Shown here piece after piece: positions 24,239 to 37,039 of a DNA stretch of 64,000 nt. The notes beneath the pieces are model-generated. The model was not told where the DNA came from and made no database searches. It worked only from the letters and a program-made list of their open reading frames with translations. This stretch comes from Kibdelosporangium persicum (lineage in GTDB: Bacteria; Actinomycetota; Actinomycetes; Mycobacteriales; Pseudonocardiaceae), in contig NZ_JAAATY010000003.1 in assembly GCF_013280595.1 (NCBI RefSeq), positions 186,001 through 250,000 of the forward strand, in the 5' to 3' direction. Made by a program: the position numbers and the translations under genes. Within the stretch, counting starts at the first letter, position 1. The number at the start of each line of letters is the position of its first letter.

Positions 24239-25315
<1,077 letters not shown>

Positions 25316-25442
25316 TCATCGCCACAGTGCCGACCGCGTCACTTTATCGAATCAGAACCCGGATGGTTGAACCGGATGTGCCCGGGCGGCGTGATCTTCG
25401 GTCAGAACCCGGACGCCCACCCACCACACTTGGAGGCATCTC

Positions 25443-25886
25443 TTGCCAGACCCCACTCGCCGCACGGTCGTGTGCGGGCTGCTAGCCGGTCTGGTCGCAC
25501 CGGTTTCGCTCGCCGCCTGCTCGTCGACCAGTGACACGCCGCCCGCGGCGCCACCCGCCCCGACCGGCGGTGGCGGCTCTGCCGGAGGCGGTGCCACGCC
25601 GCTCGCCAAGCTCGCCGACGTCCCTGTCGGCGGCGGGACGATCGTCAACGGCGGACCGGGCAGGGTCCTGCTGGTACGGCCGAGCGAGAACGAGGTCCGC
25701 GGCTACGACCCGGTCTGCCCGCACGCGGGGGCCAGCGTGGGCCTGCCTTCGGGCGGCACCATCACGTGTCCCGCGCACGGCAGCGTGTTCAACGCTTCGA
25801 GCGGCGACGTGCAGAAGGGCCCTGCCACGACCGGCCTGACGCCGGTCAACGTGAAGATCGACGGCGACAACATCGTCAGCGCGTGA
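25443..25886 (+). CDS. Rieske [2Fe-2S] lipoprotein
   Basis: 147 residues from a TTG start supported by GGAGG at 25432-25436. The N terminus has a Tat-like twin Arg (TRRTVV) and a lipobox LAAC, so it is probably exported folded and lipid-anchored. A Ser/Gly/Pro linker leads to a small Rieske fold with CPHAG and CPAHGSVF, giving the two Cys and two His ligands. It is too short to be a dehydrogenase subunit and probably shuttles electrons at the outer face of the membrane. No oxidase partner is adjacent. It resembles stand-alone actinobacterial Rieske proteins. Confidence 0.9.
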   Translation: MPDPTRRTVVCGLLAGLVAPVSLAACSSTSDTPPAAPPAPTGGGGSAGGGATPLAKLADVPVGGGTIVNGGPGRVLLVRPSENEVRGYDPVCPHAGASVGLPSGGTITCPAHGSVFNASSGDVQKGPATTGLTPVNVKIDGDNIVSA

Positions 25887-25887
25887 C

Positions 25888-25943
25888 CGGCACGGGCTGA
25901 TCGGCACAGCTTGATCGGCACGAGCTGATCGGCACGGCTTGAA
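25888..25943. repeat. Four tandem 14-bp imperfect repeats after the Rieske gene
   Basis: Four units of 14 bp start at 25888, 25902, 25916 and 25930. Each begins CGGCAC and ends in CTGAT, TTGAT or TTGAA. They fill the space between the Rieske stop and the terminator hairpin. They have no coding potential that I can support. Confidence 0.8.
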
Positions 25944-25948
25944 GGCTG

Positions 25949-25991
25949 CCCCGGCGTCGCGCACTTTCGGGAGGTGTGCGGGACGCCGGGG
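25949..25991. terminator. Terminator between convergent Rieske and hydrolase genes
   Basis: A perfect 10-bp stem (CCCCGGCGTC at 25949-25958 and GACGCCGGGG at 25982-25991) with an inner GCGCAC/GTGTGC pairing that extends the hairpin. It ends close to the stop of the minus-strand hydrolase and can serve both genes. Confidence 0.75.
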
Positions 25992-26001
25992 TTCTGTCTC
26001 G

Positions 26002-26829
26002 TCAGGTTTGTGGTGGCCGTGCCAGGAACTCGTCGACGGCCTGCCGGAAGGCGGCGGGCTGTTCGATCCACGGGTAGTGGCCGCAGTCCTCGATCACGGC
26101 GACCTCGCCGTGCGGGAACAGGTCCGCCAGCGCGACGACCGGCGCCAAGCCCGTCAGGCAGTCCCGTTCTCCGGCGACGACAAGCGTGGGTGCGGTCACC
26201 TCGCGCAACCTGGAGGCCAGGTCGGCGGGCGGCTGGACGCTGAAGTAGGCCTGGACCGCGGCGAGGTTCCAACGGCCGACCTGCGCGTGGCGCTGTTCGG
26301 TGGCCGTCCACTTCGCGTAGCCGACCGGTGCGGTGGCGCGGTTCCAGGCGTTGAACGCGTCGTCGCCGGACAGGTCGGGGCCTGCCTCGAAGGCCGCGAT
26401 CGCGGCGTCGAACGCCGGCTCACCGCGGCGGGCGTCGATGAGCTTCGGCGCGTCCGACGGCTCGGACACCAGATACGCCGACGGCGGGGTGATCAGCACG
26501 AGGCGTTCGACCCGCGACGGGAACTGGGCGGCGTAGGCGATGGCCAGCCGGGTGCCCGCGGAATGGGCGACGATCACCAGCCGGTCCTTGGCCAGGTGCG
26601 TCCGCAGGGAATCCACATCGGACGCCTGCGCCCAGGAGGAACCACCAGCACCGGACGGGGACTTCCCCACGCCTCGCAGGTGTGGCACGACGAGGCCGCT
26701 CAGCCCGGCCAGGTCACCCAGGTAACTCGGATGCCGCGCGGCCCCACCGGCAAGCGTGACAATGGGGCCGCCCTGCCCTGAGACGTCGTAGTGCAAGGAC
26801 ATACCGTCCGCGGCGACGTAGTTCGGCAC
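26002..26829 (-). CDS. Alpha/beta hydrolase, last gene of the polyester-hydrolase operon
   Basis: 275 residues, no signal peptide, so cytosolic. The fold shows the oxyanion region LAGGAARH, the nucleophile elbow AHSAGTR (Ser in AHSAG where GHSxG is common), the acid in GERDCLTG and the catalytic His in DCGHYPW. It resembles the large hydrolase group with esterases and proline iminopeptidases; substrate is unknown. It lies 9 nt after the stop of the substrate-binding protein gene and so looks like the seventh gene of the operon that begins with the secreted polyester hydrolase at 32307. A role in cutting imported ester fragments is inference from position. Confidence 0.85.
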   Translation of the reverse strand: MPNYVAADGMSLHYDVSGQGGPIVTLAGGAARHPSYLGDLAGLSGLVVPHLRGVGKSPSGAGGSSWAQASDVDSLRTHLAKDRLVIVAHSAGTRLAIAYAAQFPSRVERLVLITPPSAYLVSEPSDAPKLIDARRGEPAFDAAIAAFEAGPDLSGDDAFNAWNRATAPVGYAKWTATEQRHAQVGRWNLAAVQAYFSVQPPADLASRLREVTAPTLVVAGERDCLTGLAPVVALADLFPHGEVAVIEDCGHYPWIEQPAAFRQAVDEFLARPPQT

Positions 26830-26838
26830 ACCCCGATC

Positions 26839-28143
26839 CTAGGGCCCGACGAGCGCGACCTCCGCGGGTGTCTTGCGGGCTGTCGGCGCCGGGGTGATCG
26901 CGCCCTTCTCCCGGTCCGTGGTCATCGGTGCCTGGATCTCCCGCGTCGTGCTGTCGGGGTTGACCTGGAAGACGTACGCGCCGGTGTAGCCGGAGTGCGA
27001 CTGCGCGGAGAACCCGAACGGGGTCATGCCCGGGCCGCTGATCTGCCCTGATTCCATGGCCTGGACGAGTTTGGCACGGGTCAGGTCGCGGCCGGCGAGC
27101 TTGAGCGCGTGGGCGAACGTGTACGCCTGCGCCATGCCGAAGATGATCGTGTTGGTCAGCGGTTCGTTCGGGATGTACTTGGCGTGCACCTCGCGGAACA
27201 GCTGGATCCACGGGTCGTCGGCGCGGCCCGCGTCGGGCAGGTAGCCGGTGCCGATCATGCCGTTCAGCAGTGCGGGCGCGGAAACCTCGGTGCCGCCGCG
27301 TTTGGCGAAGTCCTGCAGCAGCCCGGTGAGGGTCGCGGGGTCGGCGCCGATGCTGCTGACCACGAACTGGGTCTTGTAGCCGAGGCGGGCCGCGGTGAGG
27401 ATCGACAGTGCGGTGAACGCCGGGACACACGAGCACACAACGACTTCGGCGCCCGCGGATTTCAGGGCGTTCAGCTGCGGCAGCACGTCGGTGTTGGCGG
27501 GGTCGTACGCCTGGCGCGACACGATCCGGTCGGCGAGGAACTGGTCGAGGCCCTTCTGCGCGTCCCGGCCGACGTCGTCGTTCTGGAACAGCAGCCCGAC
27601 CTTCCTGCCCGCCAGCTGGTCGGCGATGTACTTGCCCTGGATCTTGCCCTCGCGGGTGTAGTCGACCTGGAACCCGAACGTCTGCTTGCTCTTCGGGTCG
27701 TCCCACATCAGCGCGCCGGAGGAGACGAGCACGTCGGGCACGCCCTCGGTGTTGAGGTAGTCGACCACTTTGGAGTGTGTCGGCGTGCCCAGCCCGCCGA
27801 CGATCGCGAACACCTGGTCCTGCAACACGAGTTTCTTGACCACCTCGACCGTGCGGGTCGGGTTGTAGCCGTCGTCCTCGACCCGGTAGTCGATCTTGCG
27901 GCCGTTGATGCCGCCCTTGTCGTTGATGTAGCTGTACATCGCCTTCGCGGCAACGGAGATCCGGCTGTACCCGGGGGCGGCGGGCCCGGTCAGCGGCTGG
28001 TGCGTGCCGATCACGACAGTGTCGTCCGTGACGCCCGGCGCCGGGTCGCCCGACGCCGATCCACCGCCCGCGGGTTGCTCGCCTGCTCCCGAGCAGGCGC
28101 TGAGTAACAGCACGGACGCTGTCGCCAGGATGAGTGTTCTCAT
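26839..28143 (-). CDS. HAAT-family substrate-binding lipoprotein
   Basis: 434 residues from ATG 28143, with GGAAGGG upstream. A lipoprotein signal (LLLSAC, residues 13-18) is followed by a periplasmic-binding-protein type 1 fold: VVIGTHQPLTGPAAPG, DDGYNPTRTVEVV and FAIVGGLGTPTHS. This branch of branched-chain amino acid receptors is widespread in actinobacteria, and related receptors bind amides, aromatic acids or other small acids. The start overlaps the permease stop by 4 nt (ATGA). It delivers ligand to the two permeases and two ATPases encoded just upstream in the operon. The true ligand cannot be read from the sequence. Confidence 0.92.
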   Translation of the reverse strand: MRTLILATASVLLLSACSGAGEQPAGGGSASGDPAPGVTDDTVVIGTHQPLTGPAAPGYSRISVAAKAMYSYINDKGGINGRKIDYRVEDDGYNPTRTVEVVKKLVLQDQVFAIVGGLGTPTHSKVVDYLNTEGVPDVLVSSGALMWDDPKSKQTFGFQVDYTREGKIQGKYIADQLAGRKVGLLFQNDDVGRDAQKGLDQFLADRIVSRQAYDPANTDVLPQLNALKSAGAEVVVCSCVPAFTALSILTAARLGYKTQFVVSSIGADPATLTGLLQDFAKRGGTEVSAPALLNGMIGTGYLPDAGRADDPWIQLFREVHAKYIPNEPLTNTIIFGMAQAYTFAHALKLAGRDLTRAKLVQAMESGQISGPGMTPFGFSAQSHSGYTGAYVFQVNPDSTTREIQAPMTTDREKGAITPAPTARKTPAEVALVGP

Positions 28144-29126
28144 GGTTTTCCCTTCCGAACGGACTGCCACAAGCGGGCGAAGGCGCCATGGATGCCGCGC
28201 GGGAACACGAGCACCACGACGACAAGCACGGTGCCGAACACCGCGAGCGGCAAGTTCTGGGTGATGTTGGTGCTCAAGTCCAGCGAGTGGGTCACGTCGT
28301 TGGCCCACGCGGGCACGTAGACCAACGCGAGCGCACCCCACAGCGCGCCCCACAGGCTGCCGACTCCGCCGAGCACCATGGCGGCCAGCAACGACAGGGA
28401 AAGCGCGACGCTGAACGAGCCCGGCGCGGCCGTGCCGAGCAGGAATGCCTGCAGCCCGCCGGCCAGGCCGCCGCACGCGGAACTCAGCAGGAACGCCATG
28501 ATCTTCGTTCGTCCGATGTGGATGCCGGACAACGCGGCCGCCACCTCGTCGTCACGGACCGCGCGCAGCATCCGGCCGAACCGGCCGCGGACCACGTTCG
28601 CCAGCAGGACCAGCACAAGCAGTGTGGTCGTCCACACGACCCACGCCTGCCATTGCGTCTGCGGCACCTTCAGCCCGGCGGGCAGGCTGTTGACGGTGAA
28701 CGCCAGCCCGTTGCTGCCACCCAGGAAGTCCGGGAACCGTTGCGTGATCGCCGGTAGCCCGACGGCCAGGCCCAGTGTCGCACCGGCGAGGTACGGACCG
28801 TGCAGCCGTGCGGCCGCGGCACCGGTGAGCATGCCCGCCAGGCCCGCCGTGACGCCGGCGAGCAGGAGGTCCAGCCAGAACGGGAACGACGGCACGTAGA
28901 TCACCAGCAGCCCGACCGTGTACGCGCCGATGAACATGAAAGCGCCGTGTCCCAGGGAGATCTGACCGTTGCCGCCGGTGAGCAACGTCAGCCCGGCGAC
29001 CGCGACGAGGTAGTAGCCGACCGTCGCGATCCGCACGTTCGTGAACGGGTCGACCACCATCGTCAGCAGGACCACCGCGGCCAGGGCCGCCAGGGCGAGG
29101 AGGGTGTGCCGCAGCAGCAGGCTCAT
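28140..29126 (-). CDS. HAAT-family ABC permease, LivM type
   Basis: 328 residues from the ATG at 29126. About nine transmembrane helices, with the LivM loop motifs GGNGQISLGHGAFM and FPDFLGGSNG and the coupling region LRAVRDDEVAA. It pairs with the LivH-type permease to form the channel. It begins one base after the LivH stop and overlaps the binding-protein gene by 4 nt. Confidence 0.92.
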   Translation of the reverse strand: MSLLLRHTLLALAALAAVVLLTMVVDPFTNVRIATVGYYLVAVAGLTLLTGGNGQISLGHGAFMFIGAYTVGLLVIYVPSFPFWLDLLLAGVTAGLAGMLTGAAAARLHGPYLAGATLGLAVGLPAITQRFPDFLGGSNGLAFTVNSLPAGLKVPQTQWQAWVVWTTTLLVLVLLANVVRGRFGRMLRAVRDDEVAAALSGIHIGRTKIMAFLLSSACGGLAGGLQAFLLGTAAPGSFSVALSLSLLAAMVLGGVGSLWGALWGALALVYVPAWANDVTHSLDLSTNITQNLPLAVFGTVLVVVVLVFPRGIHGAFARLWQSVRKGKP

Positions 29127-29127
29127 C

Positions 29128-29979
29128 TCACACCCTCCTCGCCAGTCCGCGCCCGAACAGGCCATGGGGGCGCACGCTCAGCACGACGACGAGAATCGCC
29201 AGTGCGGCCAGCGTGACGAGCTCCGGTCCCAGATATCCGGACACATAGGACAGTCCGATGCCGGTGCCGAACCCGGCGATGACCGTGCCGATCGGGTTGT
29301 CCAGGCCACCGATGACAGCGGCGGTCAACGAGTACACGAAGATCCCGTCCAGCACAGTCGGATACAGAAGCGGTGGTACGGCAAGCAGTCCGGCCAGTGC
29401 TCCGACCGCCGCGGCCAGCGCCGTGCCCGCGGTGACCATCAGGCCCACACGCACACCGGCCAGCGCCGCGGCTTCGGGCGCGAAGGCGGCGGCTCGCATT
29501 CGCAGGCCCAACGACGTGAACTTGAACAGCAGCAACACGCCCGCCGCGGTGACGAGCACGACCAGGACCGCGAACACGTTGGCCGCGGAGAACAGTCCGC
29601 GGAAGTCGAAGGCGTAGCCGAAGGAACGGGGTTCGCTCGTCCACAGCATGCCCGCGACCGCTTGCACGACAAGCAGCAGGCCGAGGGTGACGATCACCGA
29701 GCCGAGTTCGCCGTGGGCGCGGGCCGGGCGGATGAGCAAGCGATCGCTCAGGGCGCCGAGCACCGCGCCTGCGACGATCGCCACCGCGAAGCCCAGCCAG
29801 TAGGTGCCCGTGACCTGGTTGACGGTGAAAGCGAAGTAGGTCGACAGCAAGGCCAGCGCGGGCTGGGCGAAGTTCACCACCCGGGTCGCCCGGAAGATGA
29901 TCACGAGCGACAGCCCCAGTGCCGCGTACACGGCCCCGCTCGCGAAGCCGCCGACCGTCAGCGTCCACCACGTGTTCAC
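29128..29979 (-). CDS. HAAT-family ABC permease, LivH type
   Basis: 283 residues from GTG 29979. Seven to eight transmembrane helices with LivH features: GLSLVIIFRATRVVNFAQ near the N terminus and AAVIGGLDNPIGTVIAG near the C terminus. The start overlaps the stop of the LivF-type ATPase (GTGA at 29976-29979). Confidence 0.93.
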   Translation of the reverse strand: MNTWWTLTVGGFASGAVYAALGLSLVIIFRATRVVNFAQPALALLSTYFAFTVNQVTGTYWLGFAVAIVAGAVLGALSDRLLIRPARAHGELGSVIVTLGLLLVVQAVAGMLWTSEPRSFGYAFDFRGLFSAANVFAVLVVLVTAAGVLLLFKFTSLGLRMRAAAFAPEAAALAGVRVGLMVTAGTALAAAVGALAGLLAVPPLLYPTVLDGIFVYSLTAAVIGGLDNPIGTVIAGFGTGIGLSYVSGYLGPELVTLAALAILVVVLSVRPHGLFGRGLARRV

Positions 29980-30670
29980 CGGTTCACCCCCAGATAGGCC
30001 TCGTGCAACGCCTCCGCCGAGATCGACTCGGCCGATCCGGCCAGCGCCACCTCGCCGAGCGCCAGCACGTAGGCCCGTTCGGCCACGGACAAGGCACTTC
30101 GCGCGTTCTGTTCGACCAGCAGCACGGTCAACCCGGTGCGGTCACGCAGATCCCGCAGCACGCGCATGATCGCCGCGGTCACCAGCGGCGCCAGCCCGAG
30201 CGAGGGCTCGTCCAGCAACAACACCCGCGGCCTGGCCATCAGGGCGCGGCCGATCGCGAGCATCTGCCGTTCCCCGCCGGACAGGGTGCTCGCCTGCCGT
30301 CCCAGCTTGCCGGCCAGCGGCGGGAACAGGGCCAGGACCTCGTCGAACGCCAGGTTGCGTCGCCACAACCCGCCGAGCCGGAGGTTCTCGCGGACGGTCA
30401 GCTCCCTGATCACGCCGCCGTGCTCGGGCACGTGGCCCAGCCCCATCCTGGCGACGCGGTCCGCGGGTAACCCGGCGATCTCGGTGCCGTCGAAGGAAAT
30501 CGACCCGGCGGCCGGCGCCACCAGGCCGCTGATCGTGCGCAGCAGGGTCGTCTTGCCCGCGCCGTTCGCACCGAGGACGGCGGTGAGCGTCCCCTCGGGC
30601 ACCGCGATGTCCACGCCGTTCAAGGCGTGCACGGCGCCGTATCTGGTCACCACGGACGACAGCGAGAGCA

Positions 30671-30671
<1 letters not shown>
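29976..30671 (-). CDS. HAAT-family ABC ATPase, LivF type
   Basis: 231 residues from the ATG at 30671. Walker A GANGAGKTT, signature LSGGERQ, Walker B VLLLDEPSLGLAP, typical of LivF. The ATG overlaps the LivG stop by one base (TGATG). Together with the LivG-type ATPase it powers the importer. Confidence 0.94.
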
Positions 30672-31428
<757 letters not shown>

Positions 31429-31432
<4 letters not shown>

Positions 31433-32307
31433 GAGTGAGGGCAGGTGTCCCGGTAGTCGGAGATGTCCCGGTCGTTCGGAGCCGGGCAGAGGAACTGCTC
31501 GTAGCGGGTGTCGTTGTCGACGAACCGCTTCAGCCACGAGATCATGTACTTGGCCATCGTGGTGTTCGGCGTCTGCGGGAAGAAGTGGCTGGCGTTGTCC
31601 AGCTCCATGTACGCCTTCTCCGAGGACGCCGGAATCGAGGTGTAGAACGGGATGGAGTGCGACGACACCGGGGCGATGCTGTCGTTCTCGCCGCCGATGA
31701 CAAACGTCGGCACCCGCAGGCCCGACCAGGATTTCTGGGTGTTCCACGCCGCGATCGGGATCGCCGCCTGCAGCGACGGCTGGTCGGCCGCGGCTTCCAG
31801 CGAACCGCCACCGCCCATCGAGTGCCCGGCCACAGCCAGCCGCGTGGCGTCGATCCGGGTGCGGACCGTGCTGCGCTGGGTCAGGTACGACAGCGCCGCC
31901 CGCAGCTGGTCGCCGCGGCTGTCCGGCTGGTCGAGGGTCGAGAGGGTGTCGATGGTGATCACCACGAACCCCTGGGAGGCGAGGCGCGGACCCATCCAGG
32001 AGATGCTGGACTGGGTCGCGGTGAAGCCCGGCGAGATGGCCAGCGCGCCGAACGTGCCTTCGCTGGTGCTCGTCGGGTAGTAGATCGTGCCGCCACCGAA
32101 TCCGGTCGCGGACAACCGGGACACGGTCGTCTGCGAGACCGAGAAGGGACCGCGAGAAGCCTCGATGCTGCTCTCGGTCGGGTCGGGGCCGCGTTCGTAG
32201 GGGTTCTCGGCATTGACCTCGTAGGCACCGGTGGCGGTGGCAGGGGCACCGGCGGCGATGAACGCGGCGATGGTGAGTCCGGTCAGGATCCGAACGCCTC
32301 TTCGCAT
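31429..32307 (-). CDS. Secreted polyester hydrolase of the cutinase / PETase family
   Basis: 292 residues with a signal peptide (1-27). The mature start [18 protein letters not shown] closely resembles the Thermobifida cutinase and LCC group. It has the catalytic Ser in GHSMGGGGS, Asp in ENDSIAPV, His in ASHFFP, the conserved Trp in AAWNTQKSW, and the paired C-terminal Cys in FLCPAP and DTCPHS. It should cut ester bonds of cutin-like or synthetic aliphatic/aromatic polyesters outside the cell. The oxyanion-hole Tyr of TfCut2 (SPGYTGT) is Phe here (SPGFTAT). GGAG lies 11 nt upstream of the ATG. It is the first gene of an operon with a full HAAT importer and is divergent from a TetR gene. Confidence 0.93.
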
Positions 32308-32432
32308 GATGCGCTGTTCTCCAATCGACTCTTCGTTGAGTGTCGGACGCGATCAGTGACTGACTGTCGCAAGCGGTGACCAGGGCACGCATCGGTGGAA
32401 TCGCCAGTCCTGGCCCGTGCCGGGCGGGTACT

Positions 32433-32456
32433 GGGCAGTACGGCCGTACGCTGCCG
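32433..32456. promoter_or_regulatory. Operator-like palindrome between the TetR gene and the polyester operon
   Basis: GTACGGCCGTAC at 32438-32449 is a perfect 12-bp palindrome. Flanking GGCA and CTGCC extend it with one offset base. TACGCT at 32447-32452 is placed as a -10 for a leaderless TetR transcript starting at 32459, so binding would shut off the regulator. The polyester hydrolase start is 131 bp away on the other strand, so control of that operon is plausible. Confidence 0.5.
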
Positions 32457-32458
32457 AC

Positions 32459-33067
32459 GTGAGCCCAACCGCCGAGGAGATCGTCCGGACCGCCGCGCAC
32501 TGGATCGACCGGGGAATCCGCCTGGACACCCGCACGCTGGCCGCCGAGCTGGGGATCTCCCGCACGACGCTGTTCCGCCGGGTCGGCAACCGGGAGGACC
32601 TGCTCGGCGACACCCTCTGGTACATGGGCGACCGGACGCTCAAGACGGCGCGAAGGGAATGGCAGACCAAGCACGGGACGGCGGTGCGTAGCCCCGACGG
32701 CCGGTTGCGGTGCCTGGAGGTGATGCGCCGCTACCGGGCGGACATCGCCGGGAACCAGGGCTTCCGCCAGTTCCTGAACGACGAGCCCGCGCTGGCGATC
32801 CGGGTGCTGACCGACCCGCAGGGCCGGGTCCAGCCGCGAGTGATGAGCGCGCACGTCGACCTGCTGAGGCGGGACGTCGAGGACGGCGGGTTCGTGCCGG
32901 TCGTCAGCCTGGAGAACCTCTGCTACGCGATCGTCCGGCTCGGTGAGGCGTTCCTGTACTCCGATGTCCTGGCCTCCCGGGCGCCGGACCTGGAGGCCGC
33001 GTCGACGCTGCTCGGTGCCCTGGTCGAAGGGCGGGTGACGGCGACGGAGCCGGCCGCGGGGTTGTGA
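32459..33067 (+). CDS. TetR-family transcriptional regulator
   Basis: 202 residues from the GTG at 32459. The N-terminal helix-turn-helix spans about residues 4-60 (TAEEIVRTAAHWID, then LAAELGISRTTLFRRVGNREDLL). The C-terminal ligand domain is not recognisable. Its divergent placement 151 bp from the polyester hydrolase/importer operon makes it the obvious candidate regulator, perhaps sensing a breakdown product. An upstream in-frame GTG at 32417 would place the operator-like palindrome inside the gene, so I prefer the later start. Confidence 0.85.
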   Translation: MSPTAEEIVRTAAHWIDRGIRLDTRTLAAELGISRTTLFRRVGNREDLLGDTLWYMGDRTLKTARREWQTKHGTAVRSPDGRLRCLEVMRRYRADIAGNQGFRQFLNDEPALAIRVLTDPQGRVQPRVMSAHVDLLRRDVEDGGFVPVVSLENLCYAIVRLGEAFLYSDVLASRAPDLEAASTLLGALVEGRVTATEPAAGL

Positions 33068-33089
33068 AACACTTCGCGCTGGTGTTTCA
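33065..33089. promoter_or_regulatory. Inverted repeat between the TetR gene and the LuxR gene
   Basis: TGAAACAC and GTGTTTCA, perfect 8-bp arms with a 9-nt spacer, begin at the TetR stop codon. No T tract follows, so an operator for the LuxR gene 31 bp downstream is more likely than a terminator, though either is possible. Confidence 0.45.
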
Positions 33090-33119
33090 TTCGGAGGGCG
33101 CTCACCGAGGAGGCCCTCC

Positions 33120-35030
33120 ATGTCGTCCGCATGGCACGAGAAGCTGCTGACGGACGCGCGCGCCGGTACGGGGGCGAGCAGCGTGCTGCTGGGCCCGGCG
33201 CCGGACGTCTCCCCCACGGACTTCACCGTGCTGCGGACAACCGGTCTTCAGTCGGAACGTGACCTGCCGTTCGCCGCGCTGCACCGGCTTCTGCTGCCCG
33301 TGGTGTCCGCGGACGACCTGCGCCGGATGCTGCGCGGCACGCCCTTCCAGTTGCGGTGTTCGGTACACGAGGTGCTGACCGGGTTGTCGGCTCAGCGGCC
33401 GGTTCTGGTGCGGGTGGACGACGCGCAGTGGCTGGACCAGGAGAGCTTGGATGTCCTGGGGTTCGCGGCCAGGCGGGTGGCCGGGCACCACATCGCGATC
33501 CTGATCACCGGTCGTCCCCAGTGGACCGGCGAGCAGCCGTCCGGCCTGGTCTGCCTGAGCGCCGAACTGGGCGACACCGTCGACGCGGCACAGCACGCCT
33601 GGCACGCCGGGCGGCCGGACTGGGCACGCACGCTGCTGTCGCGGGCGGACGTCGGCCGGGCGGCGCTGCTGCTCGGGGAAATCGAACTCCGGGACGGCGA
33701 CCCGGCCGTCGCCGTGCACGAACTGACCACGGCGGCCGGGCATCTGGACGACCCAGGTCCCGCTCTGCTGCTCGCCGGTGAGGCTCGGCGGCTGTGCGGG
33801 GACGTGCCCGGTTACCGCGCGATGGCACGCGCGGTGCCGTCGCGACCGGAACTGATGGCGGCGCACTTCCGTGGCCTGACCGCGACGTTCGAAGGCAGGC
33901 ACGCCGACGCCGCCGAACCGTTGCGGCTTGTCGTGCGGCTGGGCATGGCCGCGCCGGATGTGGCACCGGCGGTGTGGGCGGCCGAGGCGGCGTTCGCACT
34001 GGGCTTGGGCGAGAAGGCTTTCGAGTGCGCGTCGGCCGCGGTCAGCCGGGCCAGGCTGACCGGCCGGGAAGCCGCGTTGCCGTGGGCCCTGGTCCAGTTG
34101 TCCCTGGCCGCGATCGTGCTCGACCGGCACGAGATCGCGCTCGAGGCATCCGCGGAAGGCCTGGCCGCGTCCGGTGCGCAGCGCACCACCCGGACGGAAC
34201 ACCTTTCCCTGCTGGCGTTGTCGGCCGCGCTGCGAGACGACCGCGAGACCGCCCTGTCGCATCTGGACAACGCGGCGGCAGGCATCGCCAAGCGCGGCCT
34301 CGGCCGGCCGTGTGCGATCGCTTCCTGGGCGTACGCGTGTCTGGACCTGGCCGACGACCGGCCCGCGGAAGCGTTGGCACGGCTGGACGCCATGACGGCG
34401 GGGGTGAGCGGAGCGCAGCCCGCGATCCAGGCACTGGCGACGCCGCAACTGGTCGAGGCGGCGATTCTGGCCGGGCAGTACGACCGGGCGCACCGCGCAC
34501 TGGAGGTCTTCGACGGCTGGGTCCGCACCGGCGGCAACTCGGCGTGGCTGGCCCTGTCACACCGGTGCCACGGTCTGCTCACCGACGACGTCACCCATTT
34601 CGAGACGGCGATCGCCCTGCACCGCAAGGCAGGCGCCGCGATGGAGCTGGCACGGACGCAACTGCTGTACGCCAACCGCTTGCGGCTGCGGCGCCGGATG
34701 CTCGACGCCCGTGGTCAGTTCCGGTCGGCGCTGCGGGTGTTCCAGTCCATCGGCGCGCGACGGTGGATCGCCCGGGCTGAAGCCGGTTTGCGCGCCGCGG
34801 GCGAGACGGCCGGCGCGCCGAACGTCTCCCTCGCGGGCCTGACTCCCCAGCAGACGGCGATCTCCCGGCTGGTGGCGGTCGGCGAGACGAACAAGGAGAT
34901 CGCCCGGCGGCTGGTGATCAGCCACCGGACCGTCGACCACCACCTGCGCAACATCTTCACCACGCTGGGCGTGCGTTCCCGGGTGGAACTGGCCCGCCGC
35001 GTCACCAGCCTGGAGCAGGACCGGGCCTAG
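33120..35030 (+). CDS. LuxR-family (LAL-like) regulator without a P-loop
   Basis: 636 residues, shorter than the usual 850-1000 of LAL regulators. The C terminus is a GerE-type helix-turn-helix (LTPQQTAISRLVA, NKEIARRLVISHRTVDHHL). The centre (about 190-560) is made of TPR-like helices. The N-terminal ATPase lobe is reduced: where a GxxGxGKS loop is expected the sequence reads LLGPAPDVSPTDF, although a Walker B-like PVLVRVDDAQWLD remains near residue 95. ATP-dependent switching is therefore doubtful. The ATG at 33120 has GAGGAGG 7 nt upstream. Its stop overlaps the stop of the convergent LLM gene. Confidence 0.88.
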   Translation: MSSAWHEKLLTDARAGTGASSVLLGPAPDVSPTDFTVLRTTGLQSERDLPFAALHRLLLPVVSADDLRRMLRGTPFQLRCSVHEVLTGLSAQRPVLVRVDDAQWLDQESLDVLGFAARRVAGHHIAILITGRPQWTGEQPSGLVCLSAELGDTVDAAQHAWHAGRPDWARTLLSRADVGRAALLLGEIELRDGDPAVAVHELTTAAGHLDDPGPALLLAGEARRLCGDVPGYRAMARAVPSRPELMAAHFRGLTATFEGRHADAAEPLRLVVRLGMAAPDVAPAVWAAEAAFALGLGEKAFECASAAVSRARLTGREAALPWALVQLSLAAIVLDRHEIALEASAEGLAASGAQRTTRTEHLSLLALSAALRDDRETALSHLDNAAAGIAKRGLGRPCAIASWAYACLDLADDRPAEALARLDAMTAGVSGAQPAIQALATPQLVEAAILAGQYDRAHRALEVFDGWVRTGGNSAWLALSHRCHGLLTDDVTHFETAIALHRKAGAAMELARTQLLYANRLRLRRRMLDARGQFRSALRVFQSIGARRWIARAEAGLRAAGETAGAPNVSLAGLTPQQTAISRLVAVGETNKEIARRLVISHRTVDHHLRNIFTTLGVRSRVELARRVTSLEQDRA

Positions 35031-35917
35031 AGTTCGGCGAGGCGCCGCACGGCCGGTCCGGCATGCCGCGTGACCCACTCCGCGGGACGGCCCGGCGGGG
35101 GCATCAGGATCACGGTGTCCACACCGAGCTTGGCGTAGGCGGCCATCTCCTCGGTGAAGGCGTCGAGCCCGCCTTCGCTGAGCGACGTACCCGCGCCCGC
35201 GACCGTCTTGCGGATCGAGTCGTAGTCCCGTCCGACAGCGTCGCAGTGCTCACGCAGAACGCCGAGCTTGTGGCCGACGCCCTCGACGCCGAGCGAGGTG
35301 AAGAAGTTGCACGCGTCGCCGTACTGCGCGACCAGCCGCAGGGTCTTCCGCTCACCTCCGCCGCCGATCATGATCCGCGGACGCGGCGAGCTCACGGGCG
35401 GCGGCACGCACAGCGTCTCGGCCAACTGGTAGTGCTTGCCTTCGAACGGCCCGTTGTTGTCCGGGTCCCACATCTGCAGGCAGATCCGCAGCGTTTCCTC
35501 AAGCCGCTCGAAACGCTCCGCGGTCGGCGGGTACGGCACGCCGAGGCCGTTGTGCTCGCGCTCGTACCAGGCCGCGCCGATGCCGAGCGTCCCCCGCCCG
35601 CCGGACAGCACGTCGAGCGTGGTGACGATCTTGGCCAGCAGGCCCGGATGCCGATACGTCACGCCGGTGACCAGCGCGCCAAGCTGGACGGTCGACGTGT
35701 GCGCGGCGAGAAACCCCAATGTGGAGTACGCCTCGAGCATCGCGGCTTCCGCGCCGCCGTTGTGCTCCATCTGGAAGTAGTGGTCCATCACGGACATCCA
35801 GGCGACACCCGCCGACTCCGCGGCTTGCGCCGCCGCGGCCAGTTCGTCCCGGATCTCGTGACCGGGTTCGTCGAACTTCGTGATGTGCACACCGAGTCGC
35901 ACGGTCGATCGCCTCAT
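35027..35917 (-). CDS. LLM-class F420-dependent oxidoreductase
   Basis: 296 residues. Luciferase-like monooxygenase fold, probably using coenzyme F420 as in many actinobacterial relatives. Markers are SVMDHYFQM near residue 42, TLGFLAAHTSTVQLGALVTG, and GRGTLGIGAAWYEREH. The substrate is unknown. The stop overlaps the LuxR stop on the other strand. A MerR-type promoter lies directly upstream, so induction by an electrophile, oxidant or drug is likely. Confidence 0.88.
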   Translation of the reverse strand: MRRSTVRLGVHITKFDEPGHEIRDELAAAAQAAESAGVAWMSVMDHYFQMEHNGGAEAAMLEAYSTLGFLAAHTSTVQLGALVTGVTYRHPGLLAKIVTTLDVLSGGRGTLGIGAAWYEREHNGLGVPYPPTAERFERLEETLRICLQMWDPDNNGPFEGKHYQLAETLCVPPPVSSPRPRIMIGGGGERKTLRLVAQYGDACNFFTSLGVEGVGHKLGVLREHCDAVGRDYDSIRKTVAGAGTSLSEGGLDAFTEEMAAYAKLGVDTVILMPPPGRPAEWVTRHAGPAVRRLAEL

Positions 35918-35936
35918 TTCGCAGTGCCTGCGCGCG

Positions 35937-35967
35937 ACGCTATCCCCTGGAGCGCGCTCCAGGTCAA
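35937..35967 (-). promoter_or_regulatory. MerR-type promoter with an 18-bp palindrome in a 19-bp spacer
   Basis: On the minus strand, TTGACC (35967-35962) and TAGCGT (35942-35937) are separated by exactly 19 bp. A perfect palindrome, CCTGGAGCG and its complement at 35946-35963, fills the spacer. Overlong 19-bp spacers with centred palindromes are diagnostic of promoters switched by MerR-family activators. Transcription would start about 13 nt before the LLM gene. The MerR gene itself is not adjacent. Confidence 0.75.
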
Positions 35968-36052
35968 CACCGGACTGCGAGTCCCATGTAGAGGAAAGGC
36001 CGCACGCCCCGCCAGGGAACGTACGGCCGTCAGCGTGATCTCGCGCGTCGAG

Positions 36053-37039
36053 TCAGACCTCTTCCTCGAGCATTTCGGCGGTCACCGCGGCTTCGGTCGG
36101 CGGCAGGCCCAGGTCCTTGGCGCGCTTGTCGGCCATGGCCAGCAGGCGGCGGATACGGCCGGCGACAGCGTCCTTGGTCATCGGCGGCTCGGCGAGCTGG
36201 CCGAGTTCCTCCAGCGAGGCCTGCCGGTTGGCCAGCCGGAGCTTGCCCGCGGCGGTGAGGTGCTCGGGTGCCTCGGGGCCGAGGATCTCCATCGCGCGCT
36301 GCACACGGGCGGCCGCGGCGACGGCGGCCCGGGCCGAGCGGCGGAGGTTGGCGTCGTCGAAGTTGGCCAGCCGGTTGGCCGTCGCCCGCACCTCGCGGCG
36401 CATCCGGAATTCCTCCCAGGCCAGCACGGACGAATGCGCGCCCAGCCGGGTCAGCAGCGCACCGATCGCGTCGCCGTCACGGATGACGACCCGGTCCGCG
36501 CCACGGATCTCGCGTGACTTGGCCTGGATGCCGAGCCGGCGAGCCGCGCCCACCAAGGCCAGAGCGGCCTCGGGCCCCGGGCACGTGACCTCCAAAGCGG
36601 ACGAACGGCCCGGTTCGGTCAGCGATCCGTGTGCCAGGAAAGCACCGCGCCACGCCGCTTCGGCGTCGCACACGCCACCGGACACGACCGCGGCGGGAAG
36701 CCCGCGCACCGGACGCCCGCGGGGGTCGAGCAGGCCGGTCTGCCGGGCGAGCCCGTCCCCGTCCTTCACGACGCGCACGACGTACCTGGTGCCTTTGCGC
36801 AGGCCGCCGGACGTGATCACGTGCACATCGGCGTGGTGGCCGTAGAGCTCGTGGATCTCCTTGCGCAGTCGCCTGGCCGCCGAACCGGTGTCCAGCTCGG
36901 CCTCGACCACCACACGGCCGCCCACGATGTGCAGTCCGCCGGCGAAGCGCAGCAGGGAGGACACTTCCGCACGGCGACAGCACGTCTTGGACACAGCCAG
37001 TCTGCTCAGCTCGTCCTTGACTGCCGCGGTCATCGCCAC
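36053..37039 (-). CDS. whiA: Sporulation / cell-division regulator WhiA
   Basis: 328 residues. WhiA is a DNA-binding protein with an N-terminal LAGLIDADG homing-endonuclease-like domain and a C-terminal helix-turn-helix; with WhiB it controls sporulation septation in filamentous actinobacteria. The start [14 protein letters not shown] and the C-terminal [21 protein letters not shown] are characteristic. The GTG at 37039 is favoured because this N terminus is conserved; it lies 10 nt inside yvcK. Last gene of uvrC-rapZ-yvcK-whiA. Confidence 0.97.

What the first reader, a model, noticed from the sequence alone, without database searches (positions are those of the whole stretch)
26002..33067. 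Polyester hydrolase fused by translation to a complete HAAT importer: a candidate depolymerise-import-hydrolyse system
Seen: seven minus-strand genes run from 32307 to 26002 with overlaps or tiny gaps (ATGA, TGATG, GTGA, 1 bp, ATGA, 9 bp). The first encodes a secreted cutinase/PETase-family enzyme, then LivG, LivF, LivH and LivM types, a binding lipoprotein, and a cytosolic alpha/beta hydrolase. A TetR gene with an operator-like palindrome is divergent. Known: HAAT importers carry amino acids, amides and some aromatic acids; TfCut2/LCC-type enzymes release aromatic acids or hydroxy acids from polyesters. Inference: the importer takes up the hydrolase products, the last hydrolase cuts imported esters, and TetR senses a product. 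I know of no described cutinase-HAAT operon.
Basis: partly seen in the sequence, partly recalled or inferred. Interest (0 to 1): 0.85.

Follow-up and report, generated by a model that had tools for sequence, protein, structure and literature searches.

The report
Bacterial cutinase wired to an importer
In soil actinobacteria the gene for a secreted polyester hydrolase is tied to genes for a nutrient importer, side by side here and by a shared DNA switch in many relatives, which suggests a system that breaks natural polyesters outside the cell and takes up the pieces.

Summary
In detail: PETase/cutinase, livG, livF, livH, livM, binding lipoprotein and alpha/beta hydrolase form one tight minus-strand run. 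The link is not peculiar to this strain: of 36 family genomes with both genes, 13 (five genera) have them within 10 kb, against 0.18 expected; linkage changes at least six times on the importer tree.

The stronger link is regulatory. A 21-bp element lies upstream of the cutinase (32389-32409). In 150 family genomes a degenerate exact pattern has 40 sites, 33 before PETases and 4 before liv operons; the reversed pattern has none. In Thermobifida fusca the only three near-matches precede its two cutinases and its unlinked liv operon, the last shared with a divergent gene. A LAL regulator usually adjoins; it resembles Streptomyces LipR, an activator of lipA.

The binding protein lacks LivJ's amino-group glutamate and best matches a PDB entry titled fatty-acid-binding protein. 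I propose a LipR-type cutinase-importer regulon for cutin/lipid-derived fatty acids. Regulator binding and cargo are inferred; 71 of 94 related importers show neither link. The cytosolic hydrolase is accessory.

The parts
31429..32307 (-). secreted PETase/cutinase-family hydrolase (292 aa)
   Evidence: PF12740 419 bits; PDB matches are PET hydrolases and cutinases, best 435 bits; NCBIfam BHET hydrolase NF051441 502.5 bits, under its cut-off of 520; GHSMGG, END and SHF motifs read in the translation
30671..31432 (-). LivG-type ATPase
   Evidence: ABC_tran and BCA_ABC_TP_C
29976..30671 (-). LivF-type ATPase
   Evidence: ABC_tran; closest NCBIfam models UrtE and LivF, under cut-off
29128..29979 (-). 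LivH-type permease
   Evidence: BPD_transp_2 72.9 bits
28140..29126 (-). LivM-type permease
   Evidence: BPD_transp_2 124.5 bits
26839..28143 (-). HAAT-type substrate-binding lipoprotein (434 aa)
   Evidence: Peripla_BP_6 197.6 bits; best PDB match 4N03 by sequence and by fold
26002..26829 (-). cytosolic alpha/beta hydrolase, accessory, not conserved with the importer
   Evidence: Abhydrolase_1; neighbourhoods
32389..32409 (-). conserved 21-bp element, candidate site of the LAL (LipR-like) regulator, 82 bp upstream of the cutinase start
   Evidence: alignment, whole-genome searches, contexts, coordinates
32417..33067 (+). TetR-family regulator (second possible start 32459)
   Evidence: TetR_C_36 121.4 bits; conserved beside the cutinase in 12 distinct divergent loci
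33120..35030 (+). LuxR-type (LAL, LipR-like) regulator of 636 aa, without a Walker A motif in this strain
   Evidence: GerE 53.5 bits, AAA_16 weak; relatives and HTH comparison

Best explanation
A LipR-type (LAL) regulon couples secreted cutinases and lipases to a HAAT-type ABC importer. The cutinase cuts natural polyesters or lipids (most likely cutin- or suberin-like plant polyester) outside the cell; the LivGFHM importer with its lipoprotein takes up released aliphatic (hydroxy) acids; these are activated and oxidised inside. A LAL regulator acts at the 21-bp element before cutinase genes and before liv operons or its own gene and switches them on together; in the window cutinase and importer stand in one run behind one copy of the element. 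Shown here: gene order, repeatedly formed linkage, and the shared element with high genome-wide specificity. Inferred: that the LAL protein binds the element, that the run is one transcript, the cargo, and the role of TetR.
For: Linkage: 13 of 36 genomes with both genes within 10 kb, 0.18 expected; at least six changes on a tree of 94 scored loci; in L098, L099, L101, L102 and L106 cutinase is 79-84% and TetR 70-78% identical to the window's but the binding protein only 45-47%; cutinase-LAL-liv runs with 32-33% binding proteins in L321, L322, L324, L325. Element: 40 sites in 150 genomes, 33 before PETases, 4 before liv, 3 before PF01083-type cutinases, reversed control 0; 29 sites in 394 genomes of the class, 13 before PF12740 or Lipase_2 genes, 9 before livG, 4 before a LAL gene beside liv, 3 unassigned, reversed control 0; three sites in T. 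fusca. Regulator: LAL beside cutinase, liv or both, HTH 53-75% against 30-48% identity elsewhere in ten comparisons; Streptomyces LipR activates lipA (review PMC12134079, passages). Cargo: 4N03 best match; no equivalent of LivJ Glu226 in 20 of 20 relatives aligned; fatty-acid-CoA-ligase-like gene by TetR and acyl-CoA, aldehyde and alcohol dehydrogenases after liv and LAL in T. fusca.
Against: 71 of 94 scored importer loci have neither cutinase nor element; only 33 of 141 PETase genes in the family sample have an exact element. L109 is linked but has no element. In L098 a PucR-like gene lies between cutinase and liv. In T. fusca the liv site lies between livG (188 bp) and a divergent SDR gene (84 bp) and points towards the SDR gene. 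In the window's own genome two of three sites at up to one mismatch lie inside unrelated genes. The window LAL lacks Walker A. Binding proteins of other clades in the regulon match other PDB entries better than 4N03. No binding, transcript or ligand data.
Confidence: 0.6

Rival explanations
1. The importer takes up aromatic or short dicarboxylic products (terephthalate, monoalkyl phthalates, adipate), as PatDABC takes up phthalate and monoalkyl phthalates.
For: PatDABC precedent (PMC10973024, passages); the cutinase is close to PET hydrolases; aromatic-binding HAAT proteins are among the fold matches.
Against: Best sequence and fold match is the entry titled fatty-acid-binding protein; neighbours are of fatty-acid type; the other regulon enzymes are cutinase, lipase and related hydrolases.
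Confidence: 0.17
2. The importer carries amino acids or another general nutrient and is merely co-expressed with secreted hydrolases in a starvation or developmental response.
For: Most relatives of the importer stand without cutinase or element and with other regulators; the title of the S. exfoliatus paper, seen in a reference list, calls lipA expression bldA-dependent.
Against: No equivalent of LivJ Glu226; the element is confined almost wholly to cutinase or lipase, LAL and liv genes.
Confidence: 0.15
3. The cutinase and importer are neighbours by chance or by shared descent of one insertion between whiA and gapA, with no common function.
For: Adjacency within a genus is inherited, so the 13 genomes are not independent.
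Against: Different gene orders, different importer clades, at least six changes on the tree and a shared element where unlinked.
Confidence: 0.05

Closest known systems
Streptomyces lipAR operon with the LuxR-family activator LipR
   Same: Secreted PF12740 enzyme with a LAL gene beside it: of 30 Streptomyces PF12740 loci fetched, 23 have a LAL match within 1.5 kb and 18 have an upstream element above 17 bits. The review says LipR acts at conserved sequences upstream of -35 (PMC12134079, passages).
   Different: No importer is part of the described lipAR operon as far as those passages say; the window adds liv, TetR and a LAL without Walker A. The LipR site and protein were not compared directly (primary paper not held).
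PatDABC importer of Rhodococcus jostii RHA1
   Same: ABC importer for acids and half-esters released by ester hydrolysis (PMC10973024, passages).
   Different: Aromatic cargo; no cutinase; the neighbouring hydrolase PatE is recalled, not seen in a call. PatD sequence not compared.
Thermobifida fusca cutinases
   Same: Same PF12740 family; both genes carry the element upstream.
   Different: Not linked to liv; the importer is elsewhere in the genome beside a LAL gene and dehydrogenases.
Polysaccharide utilization loci (recalled)
   Same: Works like: secreted depolymerase, importer and local regulator together.
   Different: Polyester instead of glycan and an ABC importer; not a member.

Membership tests
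Bacterial cutinase / PET hydrolase (PF12740) | family profile above cut-off | tested here: met
   419 bits, cut-off 28
Bacterial cutinase / PET hydrolase (PF12740) | Ser-Asp-His triad and secretion signal | tested here: met
   read from the translation and its alignment to PET hydrolases; signal judged by eye, no signal predictor run
Bacterial cutinase / PET hydrolase (PF12740) | activity on polyester | not testable with these tools
   NF051441 (BHET hydrolase) 502.5 bits, under its cut-off of 520
HAAT-type ABC importer | two ATPases, two PF02653 permeases, Peripla_BP_6 binding protein | tested here: met
HAAT-type ABC importer | amino-acid ligand: acidic residue for the amino group (LivJ Glu226, numbering and role recalled) | tested here: not met
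   gap at that column in 20 of 20 relatives aligned with LivJ and LivK
Fatty-acid-binding HAAT protein (4N03 type) | closest in sequence and fold | tested here: met
   79 bits, next 42 bits; Foldseek rank 1, other SBPs close behind; for other importer clades 4N03 is not first
Fatty-acid-binding HAAT protein (4N03 type) | binds fatty acid | not testable with these tools
   no ligand data; 4N03 seen by title only
LipR-type regulon | LAL regulator beside a secreted lipase or cutinase | tested here: met
   LAL 33120-35030 in the window; Streptomyces 23 of 30 loci
LipR-type regulon | conserved sequence upstream of the enzyme gene | tested here: met
LipR-type regulon | ATPase (Walker A) in the regulator | tested here: not met
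   no Walker A match in the window LAL, present in many relatives
LipR-type regulon | regulator binds the element and activates | not testable with these tools
   HTH conservation only

The most novel reading that the evidence does not exclude
Actinobacteria hold a general polyester utilization regulon: one LipR-type LAL switch and one DNA element control the secreted cutinases (including the T. fusca enzymes of PET research), other cutinase and lipase families, and a HAAT-type importer for cutin-derived hydroxy fatty acids, which would be the uptake step for the natural role of PET hydrolases. Several different importer clades have been recruited to it.
Probability: 0.48. Interest if true: 0.85.

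Novelty: new variant of a known kind. Interest (0 to 1): 0.73.

Why it matters
A single 21-bp element that marks cutinase genes and an importer operon across several actinobacterial families offers a way to find further polyester-degrading enzymes by their switch, predicts an uptake system and its cargo class, and can be tested in T. fusca, where the genome has only three near-matches. I found no paper on a cutinase-HAAT link in the held library (listings only); most subscription journals are not in it.

Tried and rejected
TetR operator palindrome: ungapped dyads no better than shuffles. Cytosolic hydrolase as a system part: not conserved; a 37% relative lies near one other importer locus, L104. 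Literature: listings for 4N03 (12 of 914 shown) and for cutinase regulation in Thermobifida (15 of 49 shown) gave nothing on point by title; lipase listings led to the review; CamABCD seen in a listing only. Suberin paper PMC5158115: passages only, no transporter result. Plasmids: one match, 34.9% identity. LAL next to the 29 best PETase loci by tblastn in 1.5-kb flanks: 12 of 29, an undercount because longer stretches of some of these loci show a LAL gene. Sites judged chance or unassigned: L293, L299, L302 of 29; L246, L249, L255, L261, L262 of 24; a one-mismatch site in G132, L233, of the 17.

Limits: genes outside the window were called by my own script, so starts and distances are approximate. 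The matrices were trained partly on loci they scan; the whole-genome searches carry the weight, though their patterns come from these families and the genomes were picked for holding such loci. One search kept the best 80 of 578 matches. In one search, 19 of 113 rows were dropped for short flanks. The tree is a quick one.
Full report
Observation. The window lies in an unnamed 10.35-Mb genome. The closest named records in the binding-protein search are one titled Rhodococcus rhodnii (94%) and Kibdelosporangium aridum (93%); their contig lengths equal those of G065:C15 and G131:C17, both of the window's genus, so the genus is probably Kibdelosporangium and the first title probably wrong. The genome has three strong PF12740 genes; the other two have no liv set or LAL gene in the stretches fetched.

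Is the link conserved? In 150 genomes of the family the binding protein matches at 1e-60 in 45 and PF12740 in 82. Thirty-six have both; in 13 of these the two lie within 10 kb (203 bp to 5.2 kb; a fourteenth, G100, at 11.2 kb) against 0.18 expected by random placement. The 13 fall in five genera and are not independent. The cutinase is upstream on the same strand in three genera and downstream on the same strand in two; in two Nocardiopsaceae it is downstream and convergent. On a quick tree of 113 binding proteins with 94 scored (15 linked, 79 unlinked, 19 dropped for short flanks) linkage changes at least six times; whether by gain or loss the tree cannot tell.

The same cassette with different importers. 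In L098, L099, L101, L102 and L106 the cutinase is 79-84% and TetR 70-78% identical to the window's while the binding protein is 45-47%; in L098 a PucR-like gene stands between cutinase and liv. In L321, L322, L324 and L325 cutinase, LAL and livGFHM with a 32-33% binding protein are contiguous. In L327 and L328 liv genes, LAL and cutinase adjoin with yet another binding protein (checked for L327). In L119, L125 and L126 the LAL-ligase-TetR-cutinase cassette stands without a liv set.

A shared DNA element. The TetR-cutinase intergenic regions share a block of about 21 bp in all 12 distinct divergent loci aligned (15 rows with duplicates); three further rows, in which the genes are not divergent, lack it. 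In 24 genomes picked for such loci, a pattern at up to 2 mismatches gave 37 sites, 17 of them with at most one mismatch; 16 of the 17 lie before a PETase or a liv operon; the reversed pattern gave three sites. A degenerate exact pattern in the 150 family genomes gave 40 sites in 38 genomes, none reversed: 33 within 1 kb 5' of a PETase domain and all in its orientation, 4 about 3.5 kb upstream of the binding-protein gene, that is, before livG, and 3 before PF01083-type cutinases (one confirmed by Pfam, two by similarity) next to a ligase and a luciferase-like gene. Seen from the other side, 33 of 141 PETase genes have an exact site. In 394 genomes of the class the pattern gave 29 sites in 24 genomes, none reversed: 13 before PF12740 or Lipase_2 genes, 9 before livG, 4 before a LAL gene beside liv, 3 unassigned or chance (my classification). 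Three of the nine livG sites are shared with a divergent gene of another kind and most others with a divergent LAL gene.

Thermobifida fusca is the clearest unlinked case. L175 is named T. fusca and lies in G150. Its whole genome has three sites at up to one mismatch, none reversed: before each of the two cutinases and before the liv operon. The third lies between livG (188 bp) and a divergent SDR gene (84 bp) and points towards the SDR gene, so its target is ambiguous; in Murinocardiopsis (L153) a like site before livG has no divergent gene. T. cellulosilytica has the same three kinds and a fourth before another secreted hydrolase, whose relative in Streptomonospora also has a site. The Thermobifida cutinase sites lie 335-464 bp from my gene starts, in Pseudonocardiaceae 57-313 bp. 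In 11 genomes at up to one mismatch 19 of 24 sites could be assigned; in the window's genome two of three lie inside unrelated genes.

The regulator. A LAL gene adjoins cutinases without liv, liv without cutinase or both. Ten others are 53-75% identical to the window LAL in the HTH but 30-48% elsewhere. Streptomyces is the bridge to the literature: 48 of 121 genomes have a PF12740 match at 1e-90; of 30 loci fetched 23 have a LAL match within 1.5 kb, and 18 have an upstream element above 17 bits, 24 above 10. A 2025 review (PMC12134079, passages only) says that lipA and the downstream lipR form an operon activated by LipR through conserved sequences upstream of -35. The primary paper is not held, so identity of its site with this element is inference.

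The cargo. The binding protein's best PDB match is 4N03 by sequence (79 bits, the next 42) and by fold of a good AlphaFold model (mean pLDDT 89; rank 1, others close behind); its title reads fatty acid ABC transporter substrate-binding protein. LivJ Glu226 (numbering recalled) aligns to a gap in 20 of 20 relatives. A ligase closest to long-chain-fatty-acid-CoA ligases, under their cut-offs, lies by TetR in L069, and acyl-CoA, aldehyde and alcohol dehydrogenases follow liv and LAL in T. fusca. Binding proteins of other clades in the regulon match other PDB entries first. I prefer cutin- or lipid-derived (hydroxy) fatty acids over terephthalate or adipate; this is inference.

Against: 71 of 94 scored importer loci have neither cutinase nor element, so the importer is a general type that the regulon has recruited. 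L109 is linked but has no element. The window LAL lacks Walker A, so in this strain TetR may have taken over.

Novelty. Cutinase, HAAT importer and LipR control are each known. Their union in one regulon I did not find in the held library: searches (no paper; two; six; five), judged from titles and abstract starts. I rate it a new variant of a known kind.

Noticed in passing
window 33120-35030; L067 15494-17419; L068 2981-4495: In the window and its two closest relatives the LAL regulator is short (504-641 aa by my calls) and has no Walker A match, while many relatives have one and are 760-1088 aa.
   Followed up: partly
L071 4873-5796, L074 6876-7796: In Actinokineospora-like genomes a MpaB/Lcp (rubber-oxygenase-type) gene stands directly before livG.
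   Followed up: no
L079, L080, L081, L203, L204: A secreted tannase-like DUF6351 gene stands divergent to livG in Amycolatopsis and relatives, without cutinase.
   Followed up: no
L132 4971-5918: An NMT1-like second binding protein stands before livG in an Amycolatopsis; genes of like size are there in its relatives.
   Followed up: no
L254, L279, L335: The element also precedes PF01083-type cutinases next to a ligase and a luciferase-like monooxygenase.
   Followed up: partly
L266 1628-2467, L263 536-1387: A secreted hydrolase weakly like PETase (under cut-off) has the element upstream in T. cellulosilytica and Streptomonospora.
   Followed up: partly
window 24239-36053: The block sits between whiA-like (36053-37039) and gapA (24239-25246) genes, as in two close relatives.
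   Followed up: no
L128: A record titled Rhodococcus rhodnii NRRL B-16535 has the contig length of G065:C15, which is of the window's genus; the title is probably wrong.
   Followed up: partly
TetR-cutinase intergenic regions, window about 32350-32380: A second block resembling TTGCCACAGTC is shared by most divergent TetR-cutinase loci and could be a TetR site.
   Followed up: no
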